This document shows positions 24,868 to 45,604 of a stretch of 64,000 nucleotides of DNA, in pieces (position 1 is the stretch's first letter; the number at the start of each line of letters is the position of its first letter). The notes below the pieces were generated by a model. That model ran no database searches, had not been told where the DNA came from, and saw only the letters and a list, made by a program, of their open reading frames with translations. The stretch comes from Hysterium pulicare CBS 123377 (lineage: Eukaryota; Ascomycota; Dothideomycetes; Hysteriales; Hysteriaceae). Position numbers and translations under genes: made by a program. The DNA lies in contig AJFK01000001.1 of the NCBI GenBank assembly GCA_000467715.1, positions 1-64,000 on the forward strand, read 5' to 3'.

Positions 24868-26171
24868 CTCAACAATGGTCACTCGAGGCCATATGAGAAC
24901 TGTAAAGGCTCACCAAAATCTTCTGCCAAAACAGTAGCACCTCCATCTACTTCGCAGGAGACCTATTTCGACATCATAGCCATCACAACCTATCCCACCG
25001 ACCTCAAATCCCGGCCATGTAACTTTCAACTCCCGAGTCTTCGGAGAAGTTTCTGCTCGGATGCATATCCTGGCACGAATATAAGAAAAACCGTTCTTGA
25101 AACCACCGAATCTAGCAAACTAGTCACTACCGTTTTGACCGAGGCACCGATTCCAACGTCTACCCTTCTAATCTTGGCAACGGTTTCATAGATACGGTCA
25201 TCACTGCCTATAGCAAGTACCACCGCCTAGCACTACGCCCTGACGACGTCTGGAATGCGATCACCGTTCAGATGAGTTTCTACATCAATGCGCATGCCGA
25301 GGAGTTGCGACACATGTTCGTTCAACATGAGGGGAAGAATATGTTGGATATCGTTATGCCGGAGCTATTTGTAGAATGTAGTGATTGGGCTGATTTTGCG
25401 ACGCGAATGTCGAAAGTGTTGGAAGAGCATATCATCGATGCTGGACTTCGATGCTGGATCCAGCAGGAATTCACCACGACAACGGACACAGATCGCGTCA
25501 TCTCCGCCGTTGTACTCATGGGCGTCCTCCCGGAATACTTTAACTATCGGGGTGCTACTGGCTGCGGTCTTCCATCCGTCACCCTTCTTGGCACAAAAGA
25601 AGACTGGGAGAAGCTTGACATCGCCGCGGAGAAGCTTGGAGATTTCGGCGAGACAGCCCAGTGGCTGGAGATGCTGAGACCGGTCCTCAAGCGCTTTGTT
25701 CGGACTTTTGATGGACCCGAGTCCAACGAGATCAAGGACTTCTGGAAGCGTGTCGTTCACCGAAGACATGGAAGCGGCTTCGATTATTGCACTGGTTGGC
25801 TTTCTGCATTCTGCTACTTTGGGCGAGACGGGAAGTGCATCCTCAAAGAAGCAAACCCCTACGATAGTTCCCTCTATCACCTCAAGAACCCAGATCTGAA
25901 CCCAGAGGAGCTGGCGGAACTAACGTGGGGAAGGGGTCTGCTGGAGTTGGATGGAATTAAATATCGAAGAGTGGATTTCGATGCGATCCCGTCCGGATAT
26001 GTCTCCATACCAGTAACGGCGGTACAGTCTAACACTGGAACCGAGTATATGACCAAGATGATTGCCGGGAGTGTCGGCACGAGAGTCGAGAGTAGTGGTG
26101 AAGAGATGGAAGATGGCAATAAAGGGTTGGATCTGGTGAAGCCTGAAATGGGCTGGTGGATCTTTTCTTAG
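24868..26171 (+). CDS. DUF4419 protein, 5' end broken or mis-spliced
   Basis: The solid part is the frame open from 25116 to 26171. It contains the DUF4419 signature: NGFIDTVITAYSKYHRL, then LRPDDVWNAITVQMSFYINA, HAEELRHMFVQHEGK, later FDYCTGWLSAFCYFGRDGK and the C-terminal WWIF. The family (Pfam DUF4419) is widespread in fungi and of unknown function. The expected N-terminal ~90 residues are not in this frame. Related-looking sequence (QETYFDII ... LPSLRRSFCSDAYPG ... KTVLETTESS) lies just upstream in the +1 frame (24868-25201), and the nearest plausible ATG (24875) is in a third frame. I found no intron that joins them cleanly, so either the 5' part is damaged or the splicing is complex. 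The ATG at 25272 inside the domain is unlikely to be the true start. Confidence 0.6.
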
Positions 26172-26624: not shown

Positions 26625-28042
26625 TCATCTGGTCATTGAGACTCGAATGGCACTTCTTTCGCATCCTGCCACCATCTCTCCTTTATCGAGCGATTCGCCG
26701 GTCGAATTGCCATACCTGCAAAGCCCCGGTTTGAGTACTAATTCAAGGACGTCTTCTTCTTGCGGTTCCGGACCAGCTCTATCTATCAAGAGCCTACAGC
26801 GCTGTGTCCCAAAAGCAATCCATGTAGTGGCGGCCTTTTCGGTGACTTCCTTTATGGACTCTAAAGTCCTCTCGTTCAAATCAGAAACCGTCTCGAGCGC
26901 ATCCGACAGCTTCTTTTGAACATCGCTAAGGGAAGTTTTGAATCCTCTATGAAGTTTTGAGTTAGGATCGTATTCCGAAGGTGGATGTTCTAACAACCGC
27001 TGGCATTCCTTGAGGGTTTCGTATCTCCACCTCTCCGAGTCCAGACTAGGCTCTGGCCAAGTATAGAGGTCGTTCGCTGCTCTAGAGTCTGAATGCACAC
27101 TATCAGTTACTGGATATGACACAATAGGAGAAAGGGAAGAACTCGACCTTTGCCAAACGTTTCATTCCATTGATATTCCAATGTCTGCCCTTCCTTTCCA
27201 AAAACTCTGAATGGACTGCAGAAAATGTTTTCATGGAGGATGCTCCATATACTGTCCTGCAATATCTCTTTCTTCAGTCTCCTCGGATTTTTTGAGAGTC
27301 GTTGAAGTAAGTCATCCGGCCAAATCGCATGGTTCCCCTTCCACTCGAGTCTTGCCAATGAGACAACACTATTAACGACTTTCAAAAATTGCTCTTTCAG
27401 CTGATGGTCCGTGATTTGCTTGAAACGCTCTCGCGCGACAAGAGATCTATTTAGAGTCTCGATATCTTTTCTCAGACGGTGTTCTTGAGCAGCATGTTTC
27501 TCTTCCAAATGCGATTTTTGGGTCGCAAAGTCCATCTCTAAATGCTCCTGCTTTTCATCCGATTCCTGTCGCATACGAATTTTCTCCGAGTTATGCCAAT
27601 CTTCTAGTTTCCGCATTTGGTTGTTGAATTCGGACTGCATTTGCTCCTTCTTAGATTCCGCAGTAGACTTTGCCAGAGTAAGTCTATCATATAAATCCCT
27701 GATGTTGTCTTCTTTGCTTCGAATTTCACCGTCTTTTCTCCGAACATCATCTTGTAGTTTTTCATTTCTCTGAATCAGGCCCCGCAAATCGCTATCCTTC
27801 TTCCTACCCTCCTCTTGTAACCTTTCGTAGTCATCAATGAGATCTGATACTAAGGCCTGCGCATCTTCTGGGTTTTCGCTTTGAGGATGCGCCTGAAAGA
27901 ATTGGTTCGCCGAAGCTACACTCAGTGTACGGGATACGTTACGGCTAATGGCGCTGAGCTTGCCGTTCTGATCTTTTAAACTTGGTTCCGACGATTTCCC
28001 CCGACTGAGCACTGCTGGTATGAGCACTGCTGGTATATGCAT
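26625..28042 (-). CDS. Coiled-coil protein with conserved C-terminal module (module copy 1)
   Basis: Two exons: 27148-28042 and 26625-27088, with a 59-nt intron (phase 1), 452 residues. After a short Ser-rich N-terminus there is a long coiled coil, about residues 65-200, rich in Glu/Lys/Arg/Gln (for example DDVRRKDGEIRSKEDNIRDL). A conserved module follows: LVARERFKQITD, W..D.L, KEILQDSIWSILHENIFCSP, FRVFGKEGQTLEYQWNETFG. The second exon continues WPEPSLDSERWRYETLKECQ and ends in LVLKPGLCRYGNSTGESLD...GCE. The same C-terminal modules, with an intron at the same place and phase, occur in the gene at 38014-40765. It is divergent from the Hsp70-like gene at 28496 with 453 bp between. The family is fungal and unnamed; function unknown. 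The start codes for a short duplicated motif (IPAVLIPAVL). Confidence 0.75.
28006..28036. repeat. 15-bp tandem duplication at the start of coiled-coil gene 1
   Basis: TGAGCACTGCTGGTA occurs twice in a row near the start codon of the minus-strand gene and produces the repeated IPAVL in residues 3-12. Small and probably recent. Confidence 0.5.
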
Positions 28043-28495
28043 GATAACAAATCAAAGTGAAAATGAGATGTTTGATAGATGAAGTATTAGAAGCGGGTGA
28101 AGTGTGTGGTAGACGAAATCCATCCAGATCCCAACCTAGTGGTTCCAGACCGGCCTCAACGAGGCAGCTGAATGTGCAGGCAATGGGTGCAGAATGAAGG
28201 CTAAGGTTCTCTCGGCTTTAATGGAAATGAGGCGCTCAGCTGGCGAAAGGTATGCGTGCACTGCCCCACCCAGCAGTACTGCCTGCAGCTTGGAGCAGGT
28301 CTCAATAATGCAGAAACCCTCATTAGGCTGCATTAGTTGCTATTCGCGAAATCGCGTGGGGTTGTCGCCTAGTGCAACGAGGCTGAGAGCGGGCAGAAGT
28401 CCCAAGAGCTGCCTCGCAACCTTAATTTCTTCCTTGAGATCAATCTTTCTAATTCAACCTCCATAAATTCCAAATTTGTAGGTGTTGGTATCCTC
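28043..28495. promoter_or_regulatory. Divergent promoter of module copy 1
   Basis: This is 453 bp between the start codons of the coiled-coil gene (minus) and the Hsp70-like gene (plus). The matching pair at 40766-41310 has the same arrangement, which suggests co-regulation from a shared bidirectional promoter. I did not find clear heat-shock elements or sequence shared with the second spacer. Confidence 0.45.
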
Positions 28496-31210
28496 ATGTC
28501 TAACAGGCGTAAACCCGTTTCAGGAGACACTCCTCCAGTCAATCGAGCTGGAAAGCCATCACTCTTGGGTGGCTTCAAGCCGGCGTCAAGAAACTCTTCC
28601 ACGGAGTCGAGAGTGTCAAATTGGAACACCAGCAACGCCAGTACGATAGGAAGTGACCAGCGGAACCCAGAGTCTGCACATGAAGATGTTCAATTCACAC
28701 CAAAAAATATTCTAGAGCAGTTCGATCACCAACTTCGAGAGCAGTTCGATCAGAGGCTTTTACCCCAACTTCGAGAGCAGTTAGATCAGAGGCCTGTACC
28801 CCAACCCGCTCCAGTGAGATCTCCTTCGATACAATCTCCTATGAGGAGGTCTCCACCTCTAAGGTCCGGAGGGATATCGTCGCGACGACTTGTAATTGCT
28901 ATCGATTATGGCACTACATTCACTGGTGAGTAATGAGCCAATTCTGCAATGAGGATGCTATCGTGTACCTCTCTGACTGATTACTTCTTTTCCAAAAAGG
29001 CGTCGCATTCTCCACGCCCGAGAGCGTAAATGCTGATCTTGAAGAAATCACCGTTGTCCAGAAATGGGGTCCACAAATGAGTAATGACGACAAGATTCCA
29101 AGTGTCATTAGCTACTCACCTTGCAGTCCCGCGGGCGAGCAGCAATGGGGGTCCAGCTTGAGCCCAAAGGCCGTCGCTATGGTCAACACGAAGCTCGAAC
29201 TTGATGTTCAAGATAACAAATCAGACGAGCTCGACTTGATTATTCAAGTGCTCGACGGTATGAACAACCTCGACTTCGATCATGTCAAAGCATCAAAAGG
29301 CTATCCGAGCTACACCTGGAAGGGACCTGAGGACATCGCAACCGATTACCTTGCCAAGGTATTCCACTGTTTGAATCAGGAGATGGATTACTTTGGCGGT
29401 CCACTGAGGTCTACGATGCCCGTCGATATCGTTATCACAGTGCCAGTGGTATGTGTCAAGTCTTCTCTCCCACTGGTTGCTTAATAACAATGACCCAAGA
29501 AATGGTCTTATAGGGCCAAAAACTCAACAATGCGAGCAGTTCGGAATGCTGGTTTCAATGAAACGACATTTCCTAACCTTAAAGAATTCATCATGGTCAC
29601 CGAACCGGAAGCTGCTGCAATTTATACTGCGAGGTACCTTAAGGAGGAATTTCTCAAGGTTAGTAAATTCAAACCGGATGTGAAATTCATACTTAGTCAA
29701 AGAATAGCAAGGAGAATGTTTCGTGATTTGCGATGCTGGTGGTGGTACCGTTGATGTGGTTTCGTACAAAGTGTCTCAGCTCGAACCGAATTTTGAATTC
29801 GAACCTATTACCTTACCAACCGGTCTGTCATTTTTCATTCATTGGTATCCTGCGGTATGGGAAGAGACTGACAACAGATATAGGTGCTAAATGTGGCTCA
29901 ACTTTCATAGATGGATACTTCAAGCAGTGGCTCAGTTACGTCTTGGGAGACAGATATTATCGCGAATTGGACCCCAAAAGTGCGAGCCAACGGATCAGCG
30001 CACATGCCACTGAGGGAGCACAAATGAGAGAAGTCATGAAGCAATTCGAAGTCCACAAACGATCCTTTTTTGGAAACGCGAACGAAATGAAGATCGATTT
30101 ACCAGAACCGCTGGATAATTTGAATATTACCGGCAGAGTGAATGGAGGGGAGCTCACAATTACAAAGTATGATTACTTTAGTCCTATGCATAGCTCCCCG
30201 CTAATCTTCTTAAGTGAGGAGATGAAGTCTTTTTTTGATCCATGTGTCGATGAAATTATAGACTTGATCCAAAGTCAAATTTCACAGGTTGAGAGAAAGA
30301 GAAGCCGGGTCAAAGTAAGAGTCCCTGAATGCGGGCTTGAATTAGATGACTCATTGGACGATTAGAACATATTCTTAATCGGCGGCCTGAGTGAGTCGCT
30401 ATACCTACAAGAGGAGTTGAATTTCTCTTTGCGGCTCAGAAGAATTCAGCTCCGGAGGCCGGATACCTCGTAAGTAGTTACGACGTATAGTTTTGAAGTT
30501 GACCATGGGATATATCTGACACTGAATTCAGATGGTCTGCCGTTGTCAGAGGTGCCGCCGTCTATGGCGTAGAAAAGAGCTACCACAAGAGTTCGACGGT
30601 CATGGCACCTTGTCCCAGAAGCTATGGGATTATCCTACATCACACCTTCTCTGGAGTAACGCATGATCGTCGAGACCGACAAAGGGATGCCATAACGAAT
30701 AGGGACATGGCGAACGGGCAATTAACGTGGCTCCTTCGGAAAGGCGATTTGCTTCTCTCCGACGAGCCTCGACAGTCTGAAAAAGAATTTGCTTTCAATT
30801 TCCGAAACACTGACGAACGGAAAGTTGTTTTGCCTGTTTATGAATATCTGGACGATGATATTCCAGACAGATATGAGACTGCACACGAAGGTTTGTTCCC
30901 TCTTCATGTTTCCGGGTAACTGCCTTGTCCATAACAGCTGACACATTTCACCTTAGAATTGACGGAGGCTGCAGTACTTAATTGCGACCTTTCAGACATC
31001 CCGCTCACCGAGTTCGACCGATATCATAACTCTGAAACCGGCCAACCATACTACACTACGCATCTACTATGCAAAATGGTCGTCTCTGGCAATAATTTGA
31101 CCGTAGAGATACTGTGGAATAAGATTCGAAAGTGCAGCACTCAAATCAGAGACATTCACCGAGTTAGTTCCAAGTCGAAGAAGTCAACGAACCCCTTTGC
31201 TCGTAGATAA
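28496..31210 (+). CDS. Hsp70-like ATPase with 130-residue N-terminal extension (module copy 1)
   Basis: Eight exons: 28496-28925, 29000-29448, 29500-29658, 29708-29822, 29884-30314, 30366-30469, 30532-30890 and 30957-31210; 766 residues with all phases consistent. The first 130 residues are Ser/Pro-rich with a repeated LREQFDQR-type segment. The actin/Hsp70 ATPase fold follows: phosphate-1 loop IDYGTTFTG (about 136-144), IPSVISY, VTEPEAAAIYTARYL, phosphate-2 loop CDAGGGTVDVV, and the adenosine motif NIFLIGGLSESLYLQEEL, then WSAVVRGAAVYG. This is the divergent HSPA12-like fungal class, not a housekeeping Hsp70; the C-terminal ~200 residues do not look like a canonical substrate-binding domain and no EEVD tail is present. 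It is paired with the coiled-coil gene upstream and the PPWED gene downstream. Confidence 0.85.
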
Positions 31211-32317
31211 ACCTTGGTACGATCTCTTGGTTTAAGACCAGAGGAAGATCTGAGTGTATCATGATCCTGGTTTACGACCCCACGCCAAGACATCGTAGTG
31301 TTTCTGGAAGACGCACGAGGATTAAAACGAAAATAAATTGAAACAAGGCATTCTTTTTTTCCAGTCCCACTTTTTATCCTTCTTTTGTAAGTCCGTTTGC
31401 GCCGAGCAAAATGCATCGGAGGGAAACGGCTTTCCCGTAGGTGAGGGGAGATGCCACAAAATGCATGGCGATAATAGCTAAGCCACGGCACGAAGCTAGC
31501 CAAACGGCATCCCTCAAAATCAGCGGATATTCGGGACTCTGGGCTCGCCGGACTTAGGCATGATTGCCGAATTAATGCCCAAGGTGTCAAGAAGTGTGCT
31601 CCTTCTTGCATGATGCGGGTGCGTGTTGGCAAGGCTGAATTTCAGCCTTGCATACCGTTCCTCCTCCTCGGACGGAGGCGTGCATAATACCCTACCTCGG
31701 CTTACTCCAGGCTGTTCTAGATGGGAGGAGATTATGCTACTTCCGGAGACTCACAGGTTAGAGTGCATCAATGATACTATCAACCAGCAAGACGAGCCGA
31801 AGCATGTGATCGACAACCTGATATTACTCCTTCTCATTCGACCATGAGATGTATCGTTCCGCGCCTCACTTTCAGTGCTGCTCGCCACGTCATATTCTTT
31901 CATGCATTAAAGGTGGTAGCTCGAGACTTCTGCCTTGCACCCTTCGTTAAACATTCGGCCAACGACCAACGAGGGACATTGCGTGGCGGAGTACACAAGC
32001 GCCCATTTCTCCCAGTTCGCGAACCATTTATCCTGACTTGAATCGGAGCATGACTTTGCCTCTTTGCTGCTTGGATTGGTCTGCATCCGCGGCTTGACCA
32101 TGCTCCCCTACCTTGATAGAGTCTCCCCGGTTGAGGCCATGAACATCATCACCTCATTTCGACCATATCCTGCCTTCCCTCCGACTTTGACCTCTTATAC
32201 TTTCAATTACTAGATTCTCCAATTGATCTCAAATCGGCGATTGCTGTTCAACATCGCATCTCGGCTTCGAGGAATATCCCAAAGTCTAAGCGCCAATAGA
32301 ACGCGATCAAAATCTGT
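31211..32317. other. Intergenic, 1.1 kb
   Basis: Between the Hsp70-like gene and the PPWED gene on the same strand. ORFs on the minus strand (31156-31632) overlap the Hsp70 terminus and show no domain. Nothing else was seen. Confidence 0.45.
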
Positions 32318-32962
32318 ATGCCACTGCAGAAGGAAAACTCACGACTCGCTCCAATGGTTGATAGACGGTTTTCAATCTTCGGGAATAAGAAGAAATTGGA
32401 GGAGGCGCGACTAGAGGCAGACCGGTTGCAAGAGCGGCTTCGTCAGGAGCGGATGATGGACGAAGAAAGACGAATGAGGGAACGTCAGCTCAACGACCAA
32501 GTCGAACAAATGCAACGCCAACTACAGCAAGTACAAATCGACCGAGCGAACCAGGAGATCGAACGCCAAGAAAGACGACGGATTGAGCAGGACCGGAAAC
32601 GACAGGAGGAAATACAGCGAGAGCGGGAGCGTCAGAGGCATGAAGAAAAGCTTGAAAGGTTGAGACAAATGTCGCCAGAGACGCTGCGGAACCTGCGAGA
32701 ACTCATACGGCAGAGATACGAACTGGATGTGGAGATTTGGGGACTTCGGGGGGTTAGGAAGCCGGACCGGTGGATTGTCACGGAAAAGATGGAGAAGGCG
32801 GATGCGGTGTTGCAGGAGATTTTGACAATGATCAGGGCTTGGGAGGGAACTCAACGCTCGTGGTCTGGCGGTGAGTGGGAGAGAGTGCAGGAGATCCAGG
32901 GTCGCATACAACTGGATGGGAAGAGGTGGTGGACGGGCAATCCTCCATGGGAAGATGATTGA
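32318..32962 (+). CDS. PPWED-tail helical protein (module copy 1)
   Basis: Single exon, 214 residues (202 if the in-frame ATG at 32354, MVDRRFSIFGNKK, is used). Residues ~25-125 are a strongly charged coiled coil rich in Glu, Arg and Gln. The C-terminal ~90 residues form a conserved unit: LRELIRQRYELDVEIWGLRG, then EKMEKADAVLQEI, WERVQEIQGRIQLDGKRWWT, ending NPPWEDD. The same unit, in the same order, ends the protein at 36897-37380 (LRELMRQRYALDVEIWNLRD ... GGKRSW ... PPWEDQ). I do not know a name or function for it. Its place beside the Hsp70-like/coiled-coil pair in both copies argues for a shared process. Confidence 0.7.
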   Translation: MPLQKENSRLAPMVDRRFSIFGNKKKLEEARLEADRLQERLRQERMMDEERRMRERQLNDQVEQMQRQLQQVQIDRANQEIERQERRRIEQDRKRQEEIQRERERQRHEEKLERLRQMSPETLRNLRELIRQRYELDVEIWGLRGVRKPDRWIVTEKMEKADAVLQEILTMIRAWEGTQRSWSGGEWERVQEIQGRIQLDGKRWWTGNPPWEDD

Positions 32963-33560
32963 TCGTTGAATCTACTTTAATGCTTGGCCAGGGTCTAACT
33001 TCTCATGTGTTTAATTCATTAACCATCCACAAGGAGTATCATAATCTAAGTCCAAACGTCCAAATTAGTTTTCTCGGGTGTAATTACCAGGATCTATTAG
33101 AGTAGTATTATCGCTATTTCTGGCCGTATAAATCATCGTTGAATACATAAATGAGAGATTTAACCCGCTTTACGCGTGGTTGAGCTATATCAAACTCTTC
33201 TTCATCGTTGAATACACAACTTCTTTCTCACATAATGTAATGAACTATCAGTAACAGGACGCTATGTGGCACTGATTTAATTTGTTACTTTGTACGGAGA
33301 TTTGACTGCTCAGCCACCACCGCTAAATGGCTGTGTTCTTAGCTGAGTAAGGCAGCTTCAACCTTAGGGAATGTTGCCTCTATGACCCAGGCCTCCACCA
33401 GGCAACTGAGGTAAACGAAATACAGCCTGAAAACCGCACCAACGACCCGTCCGCTGGATCTTCAATTTACAGGGCCTCTAACACCCTCCTAGTTGCGTCA
33501 AGCTTTTATTTCCTCTCAACTGTTTGTCTCAATTGATTTATCTTGGCAGTCATCTCCAAA
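32963..33560. other. Intergenic with repeat B copy 2
   Basis: About 600 bp upstream of the NACHT gene. It contains the dispersed repeat B copy at 33131-33232 and a doubled ATCGTTGAATACA motif (33136 and 33203 areas). No gene seen. Confidence 0.45.
33131..33232 (+). repeat. Dispersed repeat B, copy 2, upstream of the NACHT gene
   Basis: CTTTACGCGTGGTTGAGCTA and flanking CATAAATGA and CTTCTTTCTCACA tracts match 20971-21078. Same orientation relative to the downstream gene as copy 1, about 330 bp before the NACHT ATG. Confidence 0.45.
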
Positions 33561-36448
33561 ATGGTTGACCCATTAACTGCGGTTGGCCTTGCTTCGAATG
33601 TTGTACAGCTGTTGAGTTTTACCAGCGACTTAATTGGTAAAGGAAGAGCCATAGGCAAAAACATTGATGGGGCCCTGGTGGAAAATCTTGAGCTGGAGGC
33701 TATCACACGTAGTTTGTCCACCTTGAGTAAGGGACTCTCTGTGCCAAGGGAAGAAACCCTTACCAGGGCCGAGAAGGAGTTGCTTCAAGTCTGCGATGGA
33801 TCAAAAGAAGTTGCCACGACATTGTTGGATGCTTTGGTAGATCTAAAAGCCCAGGGCCGGGAGGGTAGATGGAAGAACTTCCGGCAGGCTCTTCTGTGCA
33901 TTTGGAACCAAGATAAGATAGAAAACCTGTCTACCCGACTCGAAAGGTATCAACGGCAGATCAATAGCGCGTTACTAGTGACTCTTCGGTATGATACTTT
34001 CACTTGGTCTACCCAGCATGTTGCTTACATCTATTCTAGCGAAAAGACTGAGGACGCAGAGAAAAGGCGAGGGGAACGTGATAAATGGTTTAATCAAGTC
34101 TTGCACGATCTCATCAAGTCGAATAAGTCTTGGCAAGAAGAGCTTTTTGGCGCCATACTCCGCAACGATTGGCGTCCTGAGAGAGAGAAAGAGCTCGCCT
34201 CCTTTTCCGATCTACTTCACCGCGGCACTGAATTCGAGAGAAAAGACATCTTCAAGAGAGAATACACGAATCCCTTGTTTTCCAGGAGATTGAGGAGCGC
34301 CACGAGACTATTGCTGAAGCTTACCAGAAAACGTTTGAATGGATGTTCCGGGACGCACAATCGGCAAGCTGCGGGTTTTCCTCTGGAATTGTTTCGTTAC
34401 CGCGGAGTCAGCAGAGGTCTCACTGGGACAGCTTTCCAAAATGGCTTCGCGGCGATGAGCCAATATACTGGATCACCGGAAAGCCTGGTTCAGGAAAGTC
34501 GACCTTGATAAAATATCTCTACAACGAACCAAGAACTTCATCATATTTAGGAGAGTGGAGTGGCGATCTCGAACTCATCACGTCTGGTTTCTTTTTGTGG
34601 AATTCTGGGACGGCAATGCAGATGTCTAGAATGGGTCTGCTACGAACACTTCTTCAACAAGCCCTTCGCGAATGTCAGGAGTTAATTCCACTCTTATTTC
34701 CCACGAGATGGGCAAAATATCAACATTTTGGCGGAGATTTGCATCCGTGGACATGGCTAGAGTTAACGGATGCCTTGAAGAGACTGATCAGTGACCAATC
34801 CAAGAGATTTGTGTTTTTTGTGGATGGACTCGACGAGTTTGACGGCGATGGTGCCGAGCTATCGAGTTTCATTCTAGACTTGATCGACAACTCATCCCAC
34901 AACCTTAAGATTTGTGTGGCTAGTCGCCCACGGTTAGCATTCGAAGAAGCCTTTGACCAGCGGCCTTGGCTTCGACTCGAAGATCTCACAAGACCAGATA
35001 TAGAACACTACGTGAGAGAAAAACTGGCCGGTAGTACCAGATGGACATCTTTACAGGACTTCTCCCGTGCTGCAGCTTCGGACCTTGTCTCTGAGATAAT
35101 CGACAAAGCAAATGGGCTATTCCTATGGGTATATCTCGTTGTTGCAGCACTTCTAGAAGGGCTTAGAGATGGTGATAGCCTTGAAGATCTTTGGAAACGC
35201 CTAAATGCACTCCCCTTGAATTTAAAGGAGCTTTTTCGAAAAATATTGGATGACTTAAGTCCACAGTACTTTGCACAAGGTTCTGAGCCTTTCCAGTTGG
35301 TGAGAGCTTCTTCAGAACCCATCTCGCTTCTGCAACTATCATTTGCTCACGATGGTCTTCCGACTGCATTACAAGCAGAAGTACGGACTATCCGGCGACA
35401 AGAGATTAACTTCCGAGCTGAAACTATGCGTCGTCGTTTGCTCAGTCGGACCAAAGGTTTACTTGAAGCGCCGGACGAACCCACTCACGGATACCAGGCC
35501 AAAGTGAGGTATTTGCACCGTAGCGTGCGAGAGTTCTTTCAACTTGAGTCCGTGTGGAATCATATCTGCTCTGGGTCGCCCACTTTTACACCATATGCAC
35601 CACTTTGCGGCTCCTGGCTTCGACAAGTGAAAAGTACTAGGGTCAACCCACATTCCTCGCACTTCGAAGATTTCTGGTCCCCATTCTTCGCATGTATTCG
35701 TTACGCTAAAATGCATGAGTTAGATACCAACACATGTCAGGTCGCTGTTTTCGAAGAGCTTGACAGAACTGGTTGCTTGTTCTGGGGTCAACCATCTATT
35801 TGGAGATATGAAAACTGGCTGGCTGAGCTTGTTAGCCTCACTGACGGCAGGTATAAATCTGTATGTAATCGCCTTAAAGGATTGGTGGATTCCGAAACTC
35901 CGTCAAGGAAGCAACTCCAACTCCATCAGTATGTGCTCAGTCATGGTGCGTATGATACAGACCATGCCAGGATCCATGCAGCTAGTGCAAACTCAACGGA
36001 AGAGAAGAACTAAACCAAAAAGCTACACTGGACGAATACAGCTTATCTATGTAGCGAGTGGAGGGACAATGGTTTTCCTTGTCACTCGTTTTTCGAATTT
36101 GCCTTCATTCTTTCTCTCCATTCTTACGTAGCTCCTAGGCTAAACCATGATGTGGCCATCAACTACCGAATCAAAGACAAACCGTTACTAGCTCATGCTG
36201 TTGCCAGCCTAGATCTAGAGATGACACAATTGCTGTTGGAGAAAGGTGCAGATCTGAACGCGAAGAAAGGGAAATCCGAAACAATATGGTCATTTTTCCT
36301 TGAAGCACTGTTAGGAAATAAAAGTCAAGACGATGACATGCTGTACAAGATGGCTGAACTGTTACTAGATTATGGCGCAGATCCTTCCTCATTTACTCGC
36401 AAGTTAGCTTCCACGGAGAAGTTATTAGACCCCTCTTTTCACGAGTGA
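33561..36448 (+). pseudogene. NACHT (STAND/NLR-type) gene with ankyrin-like end, one frameshift
   Basis: The exons I infer are 33561-33988, 34040-35984 and 36042-36448. The N-terminus MVDPLTAVGLASNVVQLLSF...GALVENLELEAITRSL is the fungal N-terminal domain of NACHT NTPases (SesA/NACHT_N-like). After the conserved FGAILRNDWRPE and FSDLLHRG blocks, homology moves to another frame at an A-run near 34246 (HESLVFQEIEERHETI, AEAYQKTFEWMF); the shift equals one missing base and no intron explains it. Then come Walker A GKPGSGKSTLIKYL, Walker B RFVFFVDGLDEFDGDG, sensor KICVASRPR and a winged-helix region. The in-frame TAA at 36011 can be removed by a 57-nt intron (GTGCAA...CTAAAC...ACAG). The end has one or two ankyrin repeats (MTQLLLEKGADLN, MAELLLDYGADPS). 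Either a recently inactivated NLR or a one-base sequence error. Confidence 0.7.
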
Positions 36449-36896
36449 GAATCCGAACGGACTAGATCCCTAATGACGAAATTGATCGTTGCGAGAGGTG
36501 GTTCAGGAAAGACCAACGGGTCGAAGGCAATCGCGAAAGAGGGAGTACAAAGGAATTCAAGGCGTACGGGCTAGATCAATGGGCCCCTAATTCTCGGCTG
36601 ATTCTGTGCTTTGTGCCACCTATCGGTCCTGATGCAAGAGTAAGATAAAGCATGAACATCAAGAGTCTTTCTAATGCTAGTCCAGACTTGAACATCACTC
36701 CCTCCGCTGAGGAGTTCTTTATCTTTCTTGCCGTGCAAATTCACCGCAACTCCATCCGTCAATTTTGCTTCAACATCAGAGGCACACCAAGTAAGCACGA
36801 TTCCAACGCCCTTCCTGCAATTGTTGTCGAAAACCCGGTTCTGTATACATCTTCCGTGGCGAACTTTTACGCCAAGAGAAAGCAAACTTAGATAAA
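36449..36896. other. Convergent intergenic region
   Basis: About 450 bp between the NACHT gene and PPWED copy 2. Short ORFs only (36652-36891 plus), no domain. Confidence 0.45.
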
Positions 36897-37380
36897 CTAT
36901 TGGTCTTCCCATGGCGGATGCAGAGCCCAACTTCTCTTTCCTCCTTCCAAGATCCGAATCTTTATCTCCTGAAGCTTTGCATAATCCCTCCGGGATGCAA
37001 AATACTCCACGTTATCCAATGACATGACAACTCTTTCAATTTTCGCCAGGGCAGCATCCGCTCTCTTCATTTTCTCCTCCACAATATCTCTATCCCGCGG
37101 CCTGACATCCCTCAAGTTCCAAATCTCTACATCAAGTGCATAGCGTTGCCTCATGAGCTCGCGCAGACCGCGCAACTCTTCGGGGGTGACCTTTTGGCCC
37201 TTGGCACGCAATGGAGGTATGTCGCCGGGCTTGGCTTGAACAGGAGTGACATCTGTCAACTTTGAGCGTCTATTAAAGAGATTCGATAGACGTTTGGATT
37301 TGAGCGGTTTTGGCACTTTTCTGCAGGATATGTCAGATGTGTAAGCTCAGCGTGTCACTTTATACGGCATACTCAATCAT
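36897..37380 (-). CDS. PPWED-tail protein (module copy 2)
   Basis: Two exons: 37373-37380 (or longer upstream) and 36897-37320, with a 52-nt intron (GTATGC...CTGACAT...CTGCAG, phase 2). With the start at 37380 it is 143 residues, beginning MIEKVPKPLKSKRLSNLFNR. An alternative ATG at 37578 in the same first-exon frame would add 66 residues of low-complexity sequence and is less likely. The C-terminal 90 residues match copy 1: LRELMRQRYALDVEIWNLRD, EKMKRADAALAKIE, YAKLQEIKIRILEGGKRSW, PPWEDQ. The long coiled coil of copy 1 is absent. It lies head-to-tail upstream of coiled-coil gene 2 on the same strand. Confidence 0.68.
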
Positions 37381-38013
37381 CGAAGCTCCTGTGACATCGA
37401 AGAAAAAGCGAGTCGCGCCAATTTTGCTAAATCGTTCTTCTATTACTTGGCGGCTCTGAATACCTGGAAGAGACGGGAAATATGGCAAGGAGGAGTTTGA
37501 AAAGGCGTTCAGTATAAAATGAGGCTGCCAAGAATTTAAAACACTAAGTCGGCGACGAACACGGCGCAGAGCTGCCATGATATTAATCACCCCGCCCAAC
37601 AGCAACGCCTACGGCTGCGCAACCAATGCATAGCATAAAAGGCGAAGTGAGGACCCGAGGAAGAGTAAGGTTCGCAGAATGGGTGGGGAAGAATTAAGGC
37701 AACAGACATGGACCGCAGCTTCGCTGGGCCGGATAGGCTTTCTCAGCGCAGTCGATCGCTCCGGCTGTGCCAACGCGTACATGCATTAATACGAGGTGTT
37801 TAGTCGTTGCGTTAGGCGACTAGGTAGGATCTCATGACTCATAAGCAGCCAATGCTTTAGAGGGAGCAAAAAGCAACATTGTGGGATGCATCTCAAGCTA
37901 AGCCTCATAAGAAAATTGAAGTTCACGTGATATGCTATCGCTCAGTATTCACAACTTATCGCCATCTGATATTGTACATGCATTCCTGAACTTGGATAAG
38001 TCTTCTTAGTCCA
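37381..38013. other. Intergenic between PPWED 2 and coiled-coil 2
   Basis: About 630 bp, with no convincing ORF apart from the 5' extension of the PPWED 2 frame (37381-37605). Probably the PPWED 2 promoter and the 3' UTR of coiled-coil gene 2. Confidence 0.4.
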
Positions 38014-40765
38014 TTACCACGGATCAAACTGGCTGTACTCCCCTTCACAACCCCGAACAGTTTCTCGCCTATCTAGCTCTTGTCCTTGTGAATTGCCAAT
38101 TCTTTGCAGCTCAGGCTTCACAGTAAGCTCTACAGTCTCTCGTCCCCTTGGCTTATTCGCCAATAAGTTTCCACTGGACTTGGATAAGGCAATCTGTACT
38201 CTGAACCGTTGCAGTCCAAGATCTAGCCAAAGTTTGGCGGCCAGTCTGACGAGCTCCCTTATTCTTTGGATATCACTCTTACCAACAAGAGTGACAGATC
38301 CTAAACTTGAGCAGATTTCTTTTTCCAGCGTAGATAGAGAGTGATCATAGCATTGTTTTCGTCTCTGCCTTACTTCGTCGCTGCCCGACTTCTCTAGCGC
38401 CGCAACACACTGCTGTATAGTCTCATATCGCCATTTCTCTGTCTCTCGCTCAGGCTCAGGCCACTTCGGAGCATCTCGACCTTGAGCTATTTAGCTGTGA
38501 TTAAAAATATGACAGGCGGAGTAACTCACTTTCTCCGAAAGCATCAACCCACTCACGAAAGAGTGCTTTACCTTCTTCTCCAAAAACTTGAAAAGGGGTA
38601 TGGAAAACCCAATAGTAAAGCAAAACCCATATGCTATTCTGCACTATGTGCTGTTTGGTTCTCCTGGCGTTACCAGACTTTTTCAGCGCGCCCTCTGAGA
38701 AAGGCCATTCTGCTTCCTTGACTTTCTCCCATGGAACTCTGGAAATACTGTCAACCTCGCTCGCCAGTTTCTGGAAGCGACTTGACACTCCAGGGTCCGT
38801 CATCCCTTTGAAGTGATCACGAGCTACCAGTGCTCTAGTTAACGCCTCATAATCACTCTTTAGATTTATCGTTTTCTTTTCGTAAGTCTGCATCAACTCT
38901 GCCTTTTCCTTTTCACGAGCATCTCTCAATTCTTTCAATTCTTGCTCGTGACGGCTTACCAGCTCGGCCCTTTCGGCTGCAAATGTACTTTGGGCTTGCT
39001 GTTCCTTATCCGCGGACTCTTGTCTTCTTCGCTCCATTTCTTCATTCGCAGCGGTTTGCATCTGAGCCATTGAGAGTCGAAGCTCAGCCTGCTCGCTCTC
39101 GTGTTTCGTTGCCGCGGCAGCCATTTGATCTTCGCCGTGCTTTCTCTCGGATCTGCACCTCTCGTCCCACTTCGCAATGGCCATCGCTTGGTCATTTTTG
39201 AGCTTTTCTATCGCGGCCATGTGGCGTTTTCCAATGGCTTGCCTTTCCATAGCCTCATCTTGGGACATCTTCATGACATATTGACTGTGGCTGGCTGCCA
39301 TGATTTCCTTCTCGCTTCGATAGGACTCGTGCAAACTCCGTAGTTGCTGCTGGTATTGGCTATCTAAGATGTTCTTGTCTTGCTCTATCTTGCGGGTGTC
39401 ACCTTGTATTTCTTTTATTTCGGTTTCGTGCTCCATTTTCAATTTGGCAATATCTTGTTCACGTTGCCATTGCTCCCTCTGTATGGCTAGGTTGTTGATA
39501 CGACGAATTTCTTCCTCCCTCTTTTGAGACTGTGCAATTCTTCCTTCGAGCTCGATAATTTGATTGCTCAAATCACGAATTTTCATTTCATGAGTATCAG
39601 ACAACTTTTTGACTGCGGTGTTATGCCGCTGCTGCAAGTTTTCTGACTGGATTTTATGGTTGTGCTCCATGTTGTTTTTGTCGCTGGTCAGGGTCGAAAC
39701 TCGGCCAAGAAGCGCACTATTCTCATTCTCCGTGGTCACGAGCTTTTTCTTGTATCTGGAAACATCAGCTTCGGAAGAATTCAGGGCCTTTTTCGTGTTT
39801 TCCAGGTCCACAAGGTCTTTCTCGAGTTTCTTCACCTCTTCTCCAAGTTTCCAGACTCCGTGAAGGGTATGCCGAAACTTCTCAAGCATGCGGGAAACTG
39901 CGCCTTCAACGTCCTCAATGGATGCCACTCTGAGGTCTGCGTGGTATTGTCCCATCTTCGAAAACTGGTCACGTAATCGGCCCAAAATCTGTGCAGCAAA
40001 GACACCCTCGTCGAGCTCATCTGAGCGATCGTTGCTACCGGGATTTCTCTCGGTCTCATGGATTGAGCTAGCTTTACTCGATGAATCCAGAAGTTGAGAT
40101 GTATTTGGCTCTTCCAGCCTGTCGACAGGAGAGTCGACTTGAGTGCCTTCACCTGACGCTTGATTTTCACAGGCCGTATTCCTTGATTCCGCTTTAGCTT
40201 GTTCATCTTTCGGATATTTCTTCCTCCTGACCTTGGGGATTTTGACGATACTGCTCCCAGGAGGGAACACGACACCACATGATAGATCGGGCGATATCGA
40301 TGTCAAACTATTCTGAAATGCGAGTTCTAAGGATGGGGGAAGATCTGATCGGAATGAAGGTGGCGGAGGGGGTGGAAGACCCTTTTCGTTATTTGAGCCC
40401 CGGCCTAAAGTACTTCGCGGAGTATCATGCTCATGAGTTTCGTTTGTATCTTGGTTTGAAGCGCTATTGCCTTCGGAAGACCTTGGCTTGTTGTCATGGA
40501 TAGTATCCAGTGGACGATCGTCTGTCTTCTCTCGTCTGAATTTTTTCCCGGGCTTAAGGCGCAATAGGTTATTCGATTTTGGGGATATCTCCTTATCGCC
40601 TTTAACCTCAGGCCCGGATAATCTGTCTGCCTTTAGAATTCCTGTATTTCCGTCCCCTCCTCCCTGAAGACTCTGGATCAAGCCTGGATCTGGCTTTCTT
40701 CCTTGTTCATCTGGTCCCCACAGAACACGATTCACTCGTTCCTTAACTACTTTGTTTAACCCCAT
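38014..40765 (-). CDS. Long coiled-coil protein with conserved C-terminal module (module copy 2)
   Basis: Two exons: 38530-40765 and 38014-38486, with a 43-nt intron (GTGAGT...CTAAATAG, phase 1), 902 residues. The first ~270 residues are disordered, Ser/Pro/Asp-rich, with GLPPPPPPSFRSDLPPSLE. A very long coiled coil spans about residues 285-670 (rich in EEEIRR, EREQ, KLKN heptads). The shared module follows: LVARDHFKGMTDPGVSSRFQ, then HIVQNSIWVLLYYWVFHTPF, QVFGEEGKALFREWVDAFGE. Exon 2 gives WPEPERETEKWRYETIQQC and ends ELTVKPELQRIGNSQGQELD...GCE. Module order, intron position and phase equal those of the gene at 26625-28042, but the coiled coil is more than twice as long. Divergent from the Hsp70-like gene at 41311. 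Function unknown. Confidence 0.8.
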
Positions 40766-41310
40766 GTGATACTCACTTCGTTGGAGTGTAGGTTTCCGTT
40801 GGGTTTAGAAAGCGAAGCTCAATCTCGGCTTCTATGGCCAAAAACCCCGAAAGCTGAAGGTTTGAATGGTCAATGGTGAGTGAAGAGCAGGTTTTTTAGT
40901 CAGATATGAGGGTGGGGTGAGGTGGTAATGCAGTTGCAGCCTGACCGGTGGCTCCAGGTCAAGCTGCATCTCTCATAGGTGCGCACGGACGCCTGAAAAT
41001 GCATTCCATCGGATTCAGCGGGACAAGTGTCAGCGGGACAAGTGTCAGCGGGACAAATGTCAGCGTGGCTTTTCGGCAAGCCTACACAGAGGGGTAGTTT
41101 CAGCCGATCACATACTCAGCCACAACTTTCCCGCTATAAGCCTTGATATGTATGTCTACCAACTCTGCCTTGACTTCAGAGCCTCATTATTGTTATTTGT
41201 AATGGTCGGCCTCTTCCACTTAGGTTGCTTCAAAGGAAGAAAAATTTCCCGCATGAGATTGCCACACCCATCATTTTGAGTTCTTTATTGCTCTCATCAA
41301 GAGGTCAATC
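40766..41310. promoter_or_regulatory. Divergent promoter of module copy 2
   Basis: This is 545 bp between the coiled-coil gene 2 start (minus) and the Hsp70-like gene 2 start (plus). It holds a 15-bp minisatellite (41016-41065). Architecture parallels 28043-28495. Confidence 0.45.
41016..41065. repeat. 15-bp minisatellite in the divergent promoter
   Basis: CAGCGGGACAAGTGT occurs three times in a row (third unit with one change) followed by a partial fourth. The repeat is absent from the equivalent spacer of module copy 1. Confidence 0.85.
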
Positions 41311-43697
41311 ATGGAGGACGCCCCAGAAGTTCCAAAGACGCGATTGGTAATTGGCATAGATTATGGCACCACATATACGGGTTAGTTGATTTATATCACT
41401 GGAGAAGGGATGTTCAAGTGCTGACCACTCTCAACTAGGTATTGCTTTTGCAACTCCCGTTGGCAACACGTCCGCTCTCAATGAAATTGACGTGAACAGC
41501 AACTGGGGTCTTCAAATGGGAAACCACGACAAAATACCCTCCGTCATATCATATTCGGATTGCACTGCGGACTTGGAGCAACAATGGGGTAGCAGCTTGA
41601 GTCCAGACGCAGTAGCCATGGTACACACTAAGCTGGAGCTGGACGTCCAGGATGTTTCGGAAGAGCTTGACTTCATTCTGCATGCTCTAGACGGGATGAA
41701 GAATCTTAATTTCCAGTACGTGAGAGGAGCCGGCGGGCTACCAGCGTACACCGACAAAAGCTCGGAAGAAATCGTGACGGAATATCTTGCCAAGATCTTC
41801 GAGTACCTCCTGCAAGCGGTAGACAGTTTTTCGAAAGAACTGAGGGATAGAATCACAACTGATATCGTCGTCACTATACCAACAGTATGGCTCATATCGC
41901 CTTCCTTTTGGGTTGGCTGCTTTCATTGACCACATTGGTAGGGCTGGTCGTATAGGGCCAAGAATGCCACCTACCGGGCACTCACCCAAGCCGGATTCAA
42001 TCAGAAATCCTTTCCAAGATTGAATGATGTTATATTCGTTACGGAACCAGAAGCGGCGGCAATGTATACAGCGAGATACTTGAAGGATATCATGGGACAA
42101 GAGTTCCTCAAGGTACGCAAGAAGGCTTTGGCATCTCTGATAGATAGACGTGTCACTGATCTTATGCTGTAGGAAAAGGAATGTTTTGTGCTATGCGATG
42201 CTGGAGGAGGTACCGTGGTGAGTTCATTTACTCAACGACATGATCCTACGACCATGACCTGATTACCCTTTGCCCAACAGGACGTAGTGTCGTACAGTTA
42301 TGTTGGCCCCTTCTGGACGGCCCTTGGTAAAGCCATAAGTTGATAGTCTCATGCAGGGTAACCCAACTCCTTCCATCGCTTGAGGTGGAAGAAATCGGAT
42401 TTCCCACAGGTATGCGGCTTGAATGCCACTCTTTGCCCGCTTAAGTCTAGCCATGAAGCCTTCTTGTCAACCATACACTAATGGCCGCGAAGGTCGTAAA
42501 TGCGGGTCGATATTCATCGATTTAGCATTCAAAAAATGGCTTCGAGATTTGATCGGAGATAAAAACTACCAGATGCTTGACCCAAATACCGATTTTGATA
42601 AGATTAGTTCGCACGCCACGGAAGGCAGAGAGATGCGGAGTCTTATGAGGAATTTCGATACACTCAAGAAACAATTTAGTAAAAACTCTAGGGATATGCA
42701 TATGGATCTACCTGCACCCTTGGATAATTTGAACCTCGATAACAGAGTAGATGGTGGGCAAATTACCATCACCAAGTACAACAAACGCTTATCAAAGTCG
42801 TGGAGAAAGCTTGCTAACGAGCCATAGCGCGTTGATGAGGTCACTATTTGACATCTGTGTCGAACAAATTGTTGAACTACTCAAAGGCCATATTGATCAA
42901 ATTGATCGACGCGGAGCACGTGCGAAGGTTTGCATTGCTCCATCACTTCCCAAGCCTTCACTCATCCATTTTTATAGAACATATTCCTGATCGGCGGGTT
43001 CGGTGAATCCGAATACTTGCAAGAAGAGATCGGCTTCTCTCTAAGTCTAAGGGGAATCACACTCAGGAGGCCTGACACGTCTTGGACCGCCGTCGTTCGT
43101 GGAGCTGTGATCTGTGGAATTGAGAAATCAACGACCAAAAACCTGACTAAAACTAGCGCATGTCGAAAAAGTTATGGTATCAGCGTCAAACAACTTTTCT
43201 CTGAGATTGAGCACAAGGATCAGGACCTTATTACCCACAACCTCAGCAAAGTCACTATGGCCCAAGGGCAGCTCCTCTGGTTACTAATAAAGGGAGACGT
43301 AGTGCTTTCTGATGAATCTAAAGTAGGAGAGCAGATGATCACAGTGTCGTTTACCAGGACGGAACAGCGGACTGGAAAGATGACTATTTACATGTATGCT
43401 GACGATGACCGCCCAGGGAGAATCCATAATGCAATCGACGGTACGTCTGTTCAAACCATATGCGTGTGAGGGAGCATATTCTAATCGGGAGCAGAGCTTG
43501 AGATTGCAACGGTCTTACAGTACGATTTGTCAAGTACTCCGTTGAGCGAGTTTGAAGAAAGAAGAAGCTTAGACCGCAAAGAACCCTACTTCGTCGTGCT
43601 CCTGACGCTGCGGATGATACTACAGGGAGAAGAATTGGAAGCGGTCATCACGTTTAAGAACAGGGTGCTTTCTCGGGCGACGGGTATTTCGTACTAG
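41311..43697 (+). CDS. Hsp70-like ATPase (module copy 2)
   Basis: Ten exons: 41311-41380, 41439-41884, 41942-42112, 42173-42217, 42281-42291, 42357-42409, 42493-42775, 42828-42927, 42978-43440 and 43495-43697; 614 residues, frame closed at every junction. Motifs: IGIDYGTTYTG (residues 14-24), IPSVISYSDC, VTEPEAAAMYTARYL, LCDAGGGTVDVV (split by an intron), NIFLIGGFGESEYLQEEI and SWTAVVRGAVICG. It lacks the long N-terminal extension of copy 1. Six introns are at the same sites as in copy 1; copy 1 has one extra and copy 2 three extra, including a micro-exon of 11 nt encoding the DVVS segment. The C-terminal region ends in FKNRVLSRATGISY and is not a canonical Hsp70 substrate-binding domain. I place it in the HSPA12-like fungal Hsp70 group. 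Confidence 0.83.
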
Positions 43698-44280
43698 GAT
43701 GATAATATTTCTTCAAAACCTTGTAATGCTACCTACCAAAGCCTTCCGGCTCGCTTAATCACCAAGCCCGCCGTTTACATCGATCCAGCATTTGTCCTGG
43801 CTCAGCCTTCCTTCAGCTTGTTAATCGATCTGTGATTTCGATATTGTGATGTCAAGGCACTTGTCTACCTAGGCAGCAGTGAGAGGAAGCCTACGTTGCA
43901 CTGCCTGCAGCTGCCCAAAAATGGTAGTGCCGAGGCTATGATGGTGTCACTCCGGGAAACGCCTTGCATCCTTCCCATCAAAGTTCGATAAATTGAAAGC
44001 AGCAATGATCACTTCGACACATGTGAAAGACACGGCTGAGGAGCATCCAACCAATCACGCTTCCAAGCAGTGCATGCATACTTTACCGAATCCGGCGTCC
44101 TGCAAGAATGTGGCGCTTACTCCGCCTCTTCTTGCCTGTTATTAGAGGACCACGGGCCCATGACTCTTCGAGGATTCATAACGTGTAAGGACGTCTCCAC
44201 CTCGCACTGTCTCAATCTTCTATCCCTCTTCGCCTTATCACGTGATTTAGAAGGCTTCACACCTCGATCGACCAACCACA
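43698..44280. other. Intergenic, no supported gene
   Basis: About 580 bp between the Hsp70-like gene and the lectin gene, same strand. No PPWED gene follows this copy. Nothing else was seen. Confidence 0.45.
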
Positions 44281-44985: not shown

Positions 44986-45604
44986 GTATTTCCTGACGGA
45001 ACTTGTATGTTTAGAGCAAGTTCAGTCTTCTCAAGTTATGAATCTCCTTGAACATATTTCCAGGTTTTTCCTCTTATTGGGATAGATGGGGAGTAGGCCA
45101 CGTAGGTAAATGATGGTAATGATATCCAAATATGTCGCATTAGATTCAGACCATGTCTTATATGGATTGACCAACCCGGTCTCTGCTCTTCCGTAATGAA
45201 TTGGTTCTTCATCTACGTAGGAGACTCATTGCACCTCTTTGTGAGTCTATCTATCATCGTTCGACCTTTCCGTGGCCAAGTAACGGTGACTCGATGGCAA
45301 GTCACCATTACTCTTTTAGACTTTGATAGCTTGACTCCCATTTGACTCACAGGGGAGTATTTATGGGTACACAGCCTGCTTCAACTCCCAACCCCAATCT
45401 CTATGCTATCAAGAAAGACGAACAACGACAAAATCATCATTCTTCATATTATCCTCCTCTACAAACATCTATCATTACTGTTACAGAAGCTTCAAGCAGA
45501 TTCCGACCTTGGAACACTAGTGATCATCAAGCTCGGCGCTTTCGTACAGTACGTCTGTCATCGGCCAATTCGATCAAATTAATAATTGGCATAGTTCAAA
45601 CAGT
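44986..45604. other. Intergenic, no supported gene
   Basis: About 620 bp. A frame at 45342-45548 (MTHRGVFMGTQPAST...) could be an upstream exon of the next gene, but the GTACGT donor at 45549 and nearby acceptors do not give a frame-compatible join. Nothing else was seen. Confidence 0.4.

What the first reader, a model, noticed from the sequence alone, without database searches (positions are those of the whole stretch)
26625..43697. Duplicated three-gene module: coiled-coil protein, Hsp70-like ATPase and PPWED-tail protein
Two copies of a divergent pair (coiled-coil on minus, Hsp70-like ATPase on plus) lie 13 kb apart, each with a PPWED-tail gene close by (32318-32962 and 36897-37380). All three families occur here as pairs. 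Keeping three unrelated families together in both copies suggests that they work as one system, perhaps with the Hsp70-like ATPase acting on the coiled-coil partner. The NACHT gene between the copies makes a link to fungal immunity or incompatibility attractive. Seen: paralogy and arrangement. Inferred: joint function. I know of no description of this trio, but cannot search.
Basis: partly seen in the sequence, partly recalled or inferred. Interest (0 to 1): 0.88.

Follow-up and report, generated by a model that had tools for sequence, protein, structure and literature searches.

The report
Hsp70-like ATPase with coiled-coil partner
In one fungal genome, genes for an unusual Hsp70-like ATPase repeatedly sit back-to-back with a gene for a coiled-coil protein that shares one conserved tail, which suggests a dedicated two-protein switch that has been copied many times.

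Summary
Two old copies of three gene families lie in 17 kb: a coiled-coil protein (CC), an Hsp70-like ATPase (H) and a PPWED-tail protein (W). Copies are 53% (H), 51% (W) and 33% (CC) identical, and third codon positions are near-saturated while the proteins are kept. In the 37.2-Mb genome, searches found W and this CC type only here, two genes each; H has 13 further places. Those gave the main result: a diverged gene with the same C-terminal module lies upstream and divergent of H at C107, C178, C550 and, weakly, C545 and C267. Searches blind to position added C104 and C202, in all 9 of 15 H genes. Against it: C379 has the module but no H found; C180 and C250 have H but no module found; C48/C477 resemble by eye only; C518/C551 are untestable. 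So the H-CC pair recurs; W is local; the NACHT gene does not recur and looks frameshifted. Best reading: an Hsp70-type switch with a dedicated partner that docks by its tail. Contact, control and any immune role are inferred. Other fungi could not be searched.

The parts
26625..28042 (-). CC1: coiled-coil protein with C-terminal partner module (2 exons; splice sites of the intron near 27089-27147 not canonical)
28496..31210 (+). H1: Hsp70-like ATPase, 9 exons, 750 aa, with an N-terminal extension of about 125 aa
28043..28495. 453-bp region between the start codons of divergent CC1 and H1 (450 as printed, which starts one codon further out)
32318..32962 (+). W1: coiled coil plus PPWED-tail three-helix domain, 214 aa, no intron
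36897..37346 (-). W2: PPWED-tail protein (5' end and start codon not resolved)
38014..40765 (-). CC2: about 900-aa coiled-coil protein with C-terminal partner module (2 exons)
40766..41310. 545-bp region between the start codons of divergent CC2 and H2 (542 as printed)
41311..43697 (+). H2: Hsp70-like ATPase, 10 exons, 614 aa
33537..36448 (+). NACHT-ankyrin gene between the copies; a neighbour, not judged part of the system; frame change in the overlap 34232-34508 without a convincing intron

Best explanation
A two-gene unit: an Hsp70-type ATPase (H) and a dedicated partner read from the opposite strand. SHOWN: H keeps the Hsp70 nucleotide-binding domain by profile match and its phosphate motifs by sequence, but has no detectable Hsp70 substrate-binding domain and too little length for the helical lid; partners share one C-terminal module of about 250 residues (its second half modelled, at low confidence, as three helices and two strands) behind coiled coils, and behind another N-terminal region at C267; pairs recur in the genome after deep divergence. 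INFERRED: the module is the part that docks on H (the constant part of one protein meets the constant part of the other), H's ATP/ADP state sets whether the partner is held or released to assemble, and the variable N-terminal part decides what is built or where. The two would be made together from a short shared upstream region. At this locus the pair was duplicated and a third gene, W, was added, perhaps as a local adaptor. Which process it serves (immunity, stress, cell structure) is open.
For: A profile made without either window copy finds CC1 (E 3.6e-6) and CC2 (7.2e-5) ahead of the other 820 decoy frames and 400 shuffles; only C550's second exon, which was in the training set and by oversight also among the 821 decoys, ranks higher. 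Left out singly, C178 scores 1.1e-10, C107 4.6e-6, C550 3.4e-4 (best shuffle 0.0075), C545 0.038. A phase-1 intron with a consensus-like donor lies shortly before the W-x-x-x-T segment in CC2, C178, C545 and C550. Two places came out of whole-genome partner searches upstream and divergent of H genes whose flanks I had not read: C104:68773-69627(+) (E 0.005 and 0.036) and C202:57737-58150(+) (E 8.4e-4). By my arithmetic 15 H genes x 5 kb in one orientation is about 0.1% of the genome; 2 of the 3 new places meet it (the third is C379). H sisters have related partners: H1/H2, C178/C104, C267/C202, though C178's partner is nearer to C379's than to C104's. H profile vs Hsp70: E 9.9e-16 over the ATPase domain, nothing over the SBD.
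Against: C379 carries a module gene (E 3.6e-7 and 2e-5) but no H was found there (flank not readable). C180 has an H gene and no module hit better than E 0.18 in the 20 kb held. Before I expected partners at both C202 and C250; C250's was not found. The module is not visible by BLAST; the two-copy window profile reaches the other partners only at E 0.22 and 0.31, and single-sequence hhalign gave E 0.0047 for C107 but no real alignment for C545, C178 or C550 (E 0.87, 0.83, 0.18). C545 and C267 rest on weak scores (0.038; 0.003-0.011), C104 and C202 on coordinates and scores only. The C48/C477 membrane proteins do not score against the module profile (E 0.76 and 14). No interaction, expression or knockout data; no usable structure of the module (pLDDT 46). 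One genome only.
Confidence: 0.55

Rival explanations
1. Co-duplication without joint function: one ancestral divergent pair was copied as a block many times, and neighbours stayed neighbours by inheritance and a shared promoter.
For: H sisters have related partners, as block copying predicts; H1/H2 and CC1/CC2 lie as two copies of one pair.
Against: Modules are diverged to where only multi-member profiles see them while side and orientation are kept at 9 of 15 H genes; fungal gene order usually decays over such divergence (general knowledge, not tested). W changed place between the copies while H-CC did not.
Confidence: 0.22
2. The full trio (H, CC, W), with the NACHT gene, is one immune or incompatibility locus.
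For: W and this CC type were found only here, two genes each; a NACHT-ankyrin gene lies between; [quoted passage not shown]
Against: W and NACHT do not recur at the other H loci as far as held; the NACHT gene looks frameshifted; no HeLo, gasdermin or other death-effector domain among the Pfam matches of CC, W or H.
Confidence: 0.13
3. W is a nucleotide-exchange factor for H, of BAG type, and CC is the client.
For: The W domain is predicted as a three-helix bundle (pLDDT 82, pTM 0.71); chains at ranks 5, 6 and 9 of the Foldseek list come from HSP70 entries and are, from recall, BAG domains.
Against: Those hits have E about 2 and TM 0.29-0.37; rank 1 is a designed three-helix bundle; none of 156 matches reaches E 0.001. 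No W was found at the other H loci.
Confidence: 0.05
4. Conflict pair: the partner is harmful when free and H restrains it, so that the pair behaves like a poison and its antidote or a guarded effector.
For: Divergent ATPase and partner with diverged sequences and differing N-termini; an AIG1-like GTPase beside H at C550 and fused to it at C180 recalls prokaryotic conflict systems that link GTPases with HSP70 (PMC7159879, passages).
Against: No effector domain recognised; the GTPase was seen at 2 of 13 other H loci; codon data show conservation in the conserved blocks.
Confidence: 0.1

Closest known systems
Canonical Hsp70/DnaK (PF00012)
   Same: Nucleotide-binding domain: 11-member H profile aligns H2 143-440 with a canonical Hsp70 of this genome, E 9.9e-16; DYGTT and DAGGGTVD in the sequence (their names as Hsp70 phosphate motifs are recalled)
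   Different: No detectable substrate-binding domain (E 0.17 over 9 columns), no room for the helical lid; H1 below Pfam's cut-off
HSPA12A/B-type Hsp70s
   Same: Described as the most diverged human Hsp70s with a few kept motifs (PMC2266713, passages); likeness to the fungal H is recalled, not tested
   Different: That paper found HSPA12 only in vertebrates among the eighteen eukaryotic genomes it looked at; no partner gene in the passages seen
Fungal two-gene NLR/effector clusters (nwd2/het-S, PNT1/HELLP)
   Same: NTPase and partner encoded side by side as one functional unit (PMC12881547, passages)
   Different: The ATPase is Hsp70-like, not an NLR; no HeLo/HELL/gasdermin match in the partners scanned; amyloid motifs were not looked for
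Prokaryotic GTPase-centric conflict systems with HSP70 (PMC7159879)
   Same: HSP70 with a GTPase (passages); here an AIG1-like GTPase lies beside H at C550 and is fused to it at C180
   Different: GTPase matches are below Pfam's cut-off and seen at 2 of 13 other H loci; tubulin, vWA, DnaJ and GrpE were not searched for

Membership tests
Hsp70 superfamily (PF00012) | Hsp70 nucleotide-binding domain | tested here: met
   H2 22.7 bits vs cut-off 20.6, H1 19.2; 11-member profile vs canonical Hsp70 E 9.9e-16
Hsp70 superfamily (PF00012) | Substrate-binding domain with helical lid | tested here: not met
   C-terminal part vs Hsp70 SBD E 0.17 over 9 columns; H2 ends about 174 aa after the matched ATPase domain. 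A diverged SBD beta part is not excluded
HSPA12 group | Closest to HSPA12A/B among Hsp70s | not tested
   No HSPA12 model or sequence was compared; the name is a recalled lead
Fungal NLR/effector cell-death cluster | NLR (NACHT or NB-ARC) as the NTPase of the pair | tested here: not met
   H is Hsp70-like; the window's NACHT frame has no counterpart in the stretches held around the 13 other H genes
Fungal NLR/effector cell-death cluster | Partner with HeLo, HELL, gasdermin or other death-effector domain | tested here: not met
   No such Pfam match in CC1, CC2 and the C107, C178 and C545 partners; the C550, C104 and C202 partners were not scanned
Fungal NLR/effector cell-death cluster | Shared amyloid motif in both proteins | not tested
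   No amyloid-motif search was run
Prokaryotic GTPase-HSP70 conflict system | GTPase and HSP70 in one neighbourhood | tested here: inconclusive
   AIG1 matches at C550 and C180, 20.0 and 15.5 bits vs cut-off 27; 2 of 13 other H loci
Recurrent H-CC pair (proposed here) | Upstream, divergent neighbour of H with the C-terminal module | tested here: met
   9 of 15 H genes (window x2, C107, C545, C178, C550, C104, C267, C202; C545 and C267 weak, C104 and C202 by coordinates and scores); C48/C477 by eye only; C180 and C250 not found; C518 and C551 untestable
Recurrent H-CC pair (proposed here) | Module genes do not occur without H | tested here: inconclusive
   C379 has a module gene and no H match in three searches; its flank could not be read

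The most novel reading that the evidence does not exclude
Fungi carry an expanded, undescribed family of Hsp70-based two-gene switches: an Hsp70-like ATPase without the canonical lid that controls one dedicated partner through a conserved docking module, the partner's N-terminal part being exchanged (coiled coil, membrane anchor, other) to give different outputs, in the way NLRs and their effectors are paired in fungal immunity.
Probability: 0.3. Interest if true: 0.85.

Novelty: new variant of a known kind. Interest (0 to 1): 0.63.

Why it matters
Hsp70s are known as general chaperones with J-domain and exchange-factor helpers. A repeated head-to-head pairing of an Hsp70-like ATPase with one conserved partner module would give the unexplained Hsp70-like genes of filamentous fungi a testable job, and would add an Hsp70-type ATPase to the NTPases that fungi pair with dedicated partner genes. 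The pair is small enough to be tested by co-folding, co-precipitation and single deletions in a laboratory fungus.

Tried and rejected
Trio as the general unit: rejected, because W was found only at this locus. NACHT as a regular member: rejected, no counterpart in the stretches held around the other H genes. BAG-type W: not supported. W and ATP-synthase subunit D (18.4 bits, cut-off 25.7), CC1 and HEPN_RES_NTD1 (13.9-15.4 bits, cut-off 27.4): below cut-off, taken as chance. PADLOC: the C107 partner matches LmuB (E 1.1e-4, 19.5 bits) and JetC (E 0.0023) and W1 matches AbiEi (E 0.012), all over coiled-coil stretches and taken as composition. NCBIfam: H2 matches HscA at 22.2 bits, far below the cut-off 743. 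Fold of CC exon 2: pLDDT 46, used only for its helix-then-strand outline. Membrane proteins at C48/C477 as module members: the ending is alike by eye and the two are related to each other (E 7e-6), but they do not score with the module profile; not counted. Heptad score: besides the four partner frames it flags frames that are no partners (C48:19056-20483, C267:20746-23546 and others), so coiled coil alone is no evidence. Shared promoter motif between the two intergenic regions: only chance-length matches of up to 10 bases. Relatives of H, CC and W in viral contigs: 0 confirmed in three scans. Solved structures: none for H or CC; best for W E 0.03. No collection here holds other fungal genomes, so linkage across species was not tested. 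In one search C550's second exon stayed among the decoys although it was in training; it ranks first in six of the seven runs for that reason; left-out C545 also ranks below a C267 frame that is itself a candidate partner. Papers: eight searches showed 98 rows of longer lists (the counts were 53, 140, 5, 10, 342, 54, 44 and 21 papers); none of the rows by title or abstract start describes such a pair. Subscription journals and bioRxiv are not held.
Full report
WHAT IS THERE. Gene models give, in order: CC1 (-), H1 (+), W1 (+), a NACHT-ankyrin gene (+), W2 (-), CC2 (-), H2 (+). H1/H2 are 53% identical over 605 aligned columns, W1/W2 51% over 96, CC1/CC2 33% over 349. Seven introns of H1 and H2 coincide in column and phase (H1 has 8, H2 9; the models were chosen with the other copy in view), and third codon positions are 0.34-0.42 identical against 0.68-0.78 for second positions in conserved blocks: an old duplication with all three pairs kept at the protein level. 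CC1's intron has no canonical donor, so its exact splice is open; the start of W2 was not resolved.

WHERE ELSE. Protein searches of the whole genome found the W domain in 2 places only, both here, with either copy as query and E up to 10, and this CC module in 2 genes only (4 exon matches; E up to 1 and 10). The tool scores only the best candidates of a loose first look, so these are lower bounds. H1 gave 25 exon matches at E<=0.01: 10 in the window and 15 on 13 other contigs, C107, C545, C518, C551, C180, C178, C48, C477, C550, C267, C250, C104, C202; canonical Hsp70 genes lie elsewhere. H1 and H2 are each other's best match by far (678 bits; next 157). Taken alone this would say: one local duplication of a locus-specific trio.

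THE RECURRENT PAIR. I read the neighbourhoods of 10 of these 13 places at up to 20 kb; of C250, C104 and C202 only about 3 kb was held. A crude heptad score flagged coiled-coil frames upstream and divergent of H at C107, C545, C178 and C550, among other frames, and their C-terminal parts looked like the CC module. BLAST did not see this; the two-copy window profile put the C178 and C107 partners first among foreign frames but only at E 0.22 and 0.31; and single-sequence hhalign gave E 0.0047 for C107 and nothing for C545, C178 and C550. I then tested it by leave-one-out profiles of six modules against 821 other reading frames of the neighbourhoods and the window and 200 shuffles per left-out sequence. 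Left-out scores: CC1 2.8e-28, CC2 1.6e-22, C178 1.1e-10, C107 4.6e-6, C550 3.4e-4, C545 0.038. With both window copies left out, CC1 scores 3.6e-6 and CC2 7.2e-5. The best foreign frame or shuffle per run lies between 0.0005 and 0.4 (C550's own second exon, left among the decoys by oversight, is set aside). The frame that recurs there, C267:11047-11565 (-), lies upstream and divergent of the C267 H gene: E 0.003 to the six-member profile among the 831 frames plus shuffles, 0.011 among the 5327 fragments. A phase-1 intron with a consensus-like donor shortly before the W-x-x-x-T helix in CC2, C178, C545 and C550 is independent support; the C107 frame runs through without an intron and CC1 is ambiguous.

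SEARCHES BLIND TO POSITION. The C178 partner, searched against the whole genome, returned itself, C379:39934-40816 (+) (E 3.6e-7 and 2e-5) and C104:68773-69627 (+) (E 0.005 and 0.036). C104 carries an H gene on the minus strand with its 5' end near 65.1 kb, so this partner lies upstream and divergent. The C267 partner returned itself and C202:57737-58150 (+) (E 8.4e-4), upstream and divergent of the C202 H gene, whose 5' frame ends at 55.67 kb. Before that search I expected hits at C202 and C250; C250 gave none. C379 has no H match in three searches and its flank could not be read; it counts against the rule unless a missed H is there. So 2 of 3 new places fit. By my arithmetic the chance for one place is about 0.1% (15 genes x 5 kb, one strand, of 74.4 Mb of strand). 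The C107 partner found only itself and, at E 0.14, C379.

TALLY. Of 15 H genes, 9 have an upstream divergent gene with the module by sequence score (window x2, C107, C545, C178, C550, C104, C267, C202; C545 and C267 weak; C104 and C202 by coordinates and scores, their letters not read). At C48 and C477 a gene with one membrane anchor carries a similar ending by eye; these two match each other and nothing else in the genome at E<=1 (E 7e-6), but do not score with the module profile (E 0.76 and 14), and at C477 the gene is on H's strand with another open frame between. C180 has no module hit better than E 0.18 in 20 kb; there a GTPase-like and coiled part stands in one open frame ahead of the start of H, and its relative lies beside H and the partner at C550 (E 5e-79; AIG1 match below cut-off). 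C250: none found. C518 and C551: H's 5' side runs off the contig. A degenerate phosphate-1 pattern found 6 places, all known H loci, with 0 in the reversed control.

PARTS. H: an 11-member family profile aligns with a canonical Hsp70 of this genome over the ATPase domain (E 9.9e-16) and not over the substrate-binding domain (E 0.17 over 9 columns); DYGTT, DAGGGTVD and LIGG segments are in the sequence (motif roles recalled). CC module: its second half is modelled as three helices and two strands at low confidence (pLDDT 46). W: three-helix bundle, pLDDT 82, no significant fold match.

HOW IT MOST LIKELY WORKS. The parts that stay constant across the pairs are the ATPase and the partner's C-terminal module; the parts that vary are the N-termini. 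The simplest reading is that the two constant parts meet: the module docks on H, the ATP cycle of H sets whether the partner is held or free to assemble, and the N-terminus sets the output. Shown: homology, adjacency, orientation, conservation. Inferred: contact, direction of control, co-expression from the 453- and 545-bp upstream regions, and any role in immunity. W is then a local addition. Block duplication without joint function remains the main rival.

KNOWN OR NEW. [quoted passage not shown] a study of fungal NLRs recalls that plant NLRs occur in head-to-head sensor/helper pairs (PMC12258605, passages); prokaryotic conflict systems link GTPases with HSP70 (PMC7159879, passages). HSPA12 was found only in vertebrates in a survey of eighteen genomes (PMC2266713, passages). 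One survey notes Hsp70 expansion in some early-diverging fungi (PMC8778642, passages). PMC8195603 was seen in passages and adds nothing direct. Among the rows shown by eight searches none describes an Hsp70-like/coiled-coil gene pair in fungi (listings only, apart from the six papers named). Whether such pairs are already known from other fungal genomes I cannot tell.

Noticed in passing
window 33537-36448 (+): NACHT-ankyrin gene: the N-terminal frame and the NACHT frame overlap with a frame change, and only introns with weak donors and AAG/GAG acceptors would join them; decay or an assembly error.
   Followed up: partly
G000:C180:43195-44313 (+) and G000:C550:35567-36730 (-): AIG1-like GTPase plus coiled part, in one open frame ahead of the Hsp70-like start at C180 and a separate frame beside H and its partner at C550.
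   Followed up: partly
G000:C48:24125-25627 (+) and G000:C477:13734-15190 (-): Membrane-anchored proteins of one two-member family, both near Hsp70-like genes, with an ending that resembles the partner module by eye.
   Followed up: partly
G000:C379:39934-40816 (+): Partner-module gene without a detected Hsp70-like neighbour; flank could not be read.
   Followed up: partly
window 44251-44985 (+): Ricin-B-type lectin domain (26.1 bits, cut-off 25.6) plus one membrane segment just downstream of H2; its frame matches the membrane protein beside H at C477 (E 3.7e-7), perhaps only by membrane and Ser/Thr-rich stretches.
   Followed up: no
window 25116-26171 (+): DUF4419 protein next to the cluster (E 6.9e-100).
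   Followed up: no
window 45524-46321 (+) and 5204-6091 (-): Two related reading frames 40 kb apart (E 5.5e-29); no Pfam match for the first.
   Followed up: no
window 55741-57156 (+): Frame related to G000:C551:5248-6879, which lies a few kb from an Hsp70-like gene there (E 2.2e-6).
   Followed up: no
window 61286-62383 and 63064-63999 (+): Tandem related frames at the window's edge (E 7e-12).
   Followed up: no
window 28705-28800: Short tandem repeat (36-nt unit) inside the N-terminal extension of H1; H2 has no such extension.
   Followed up: no
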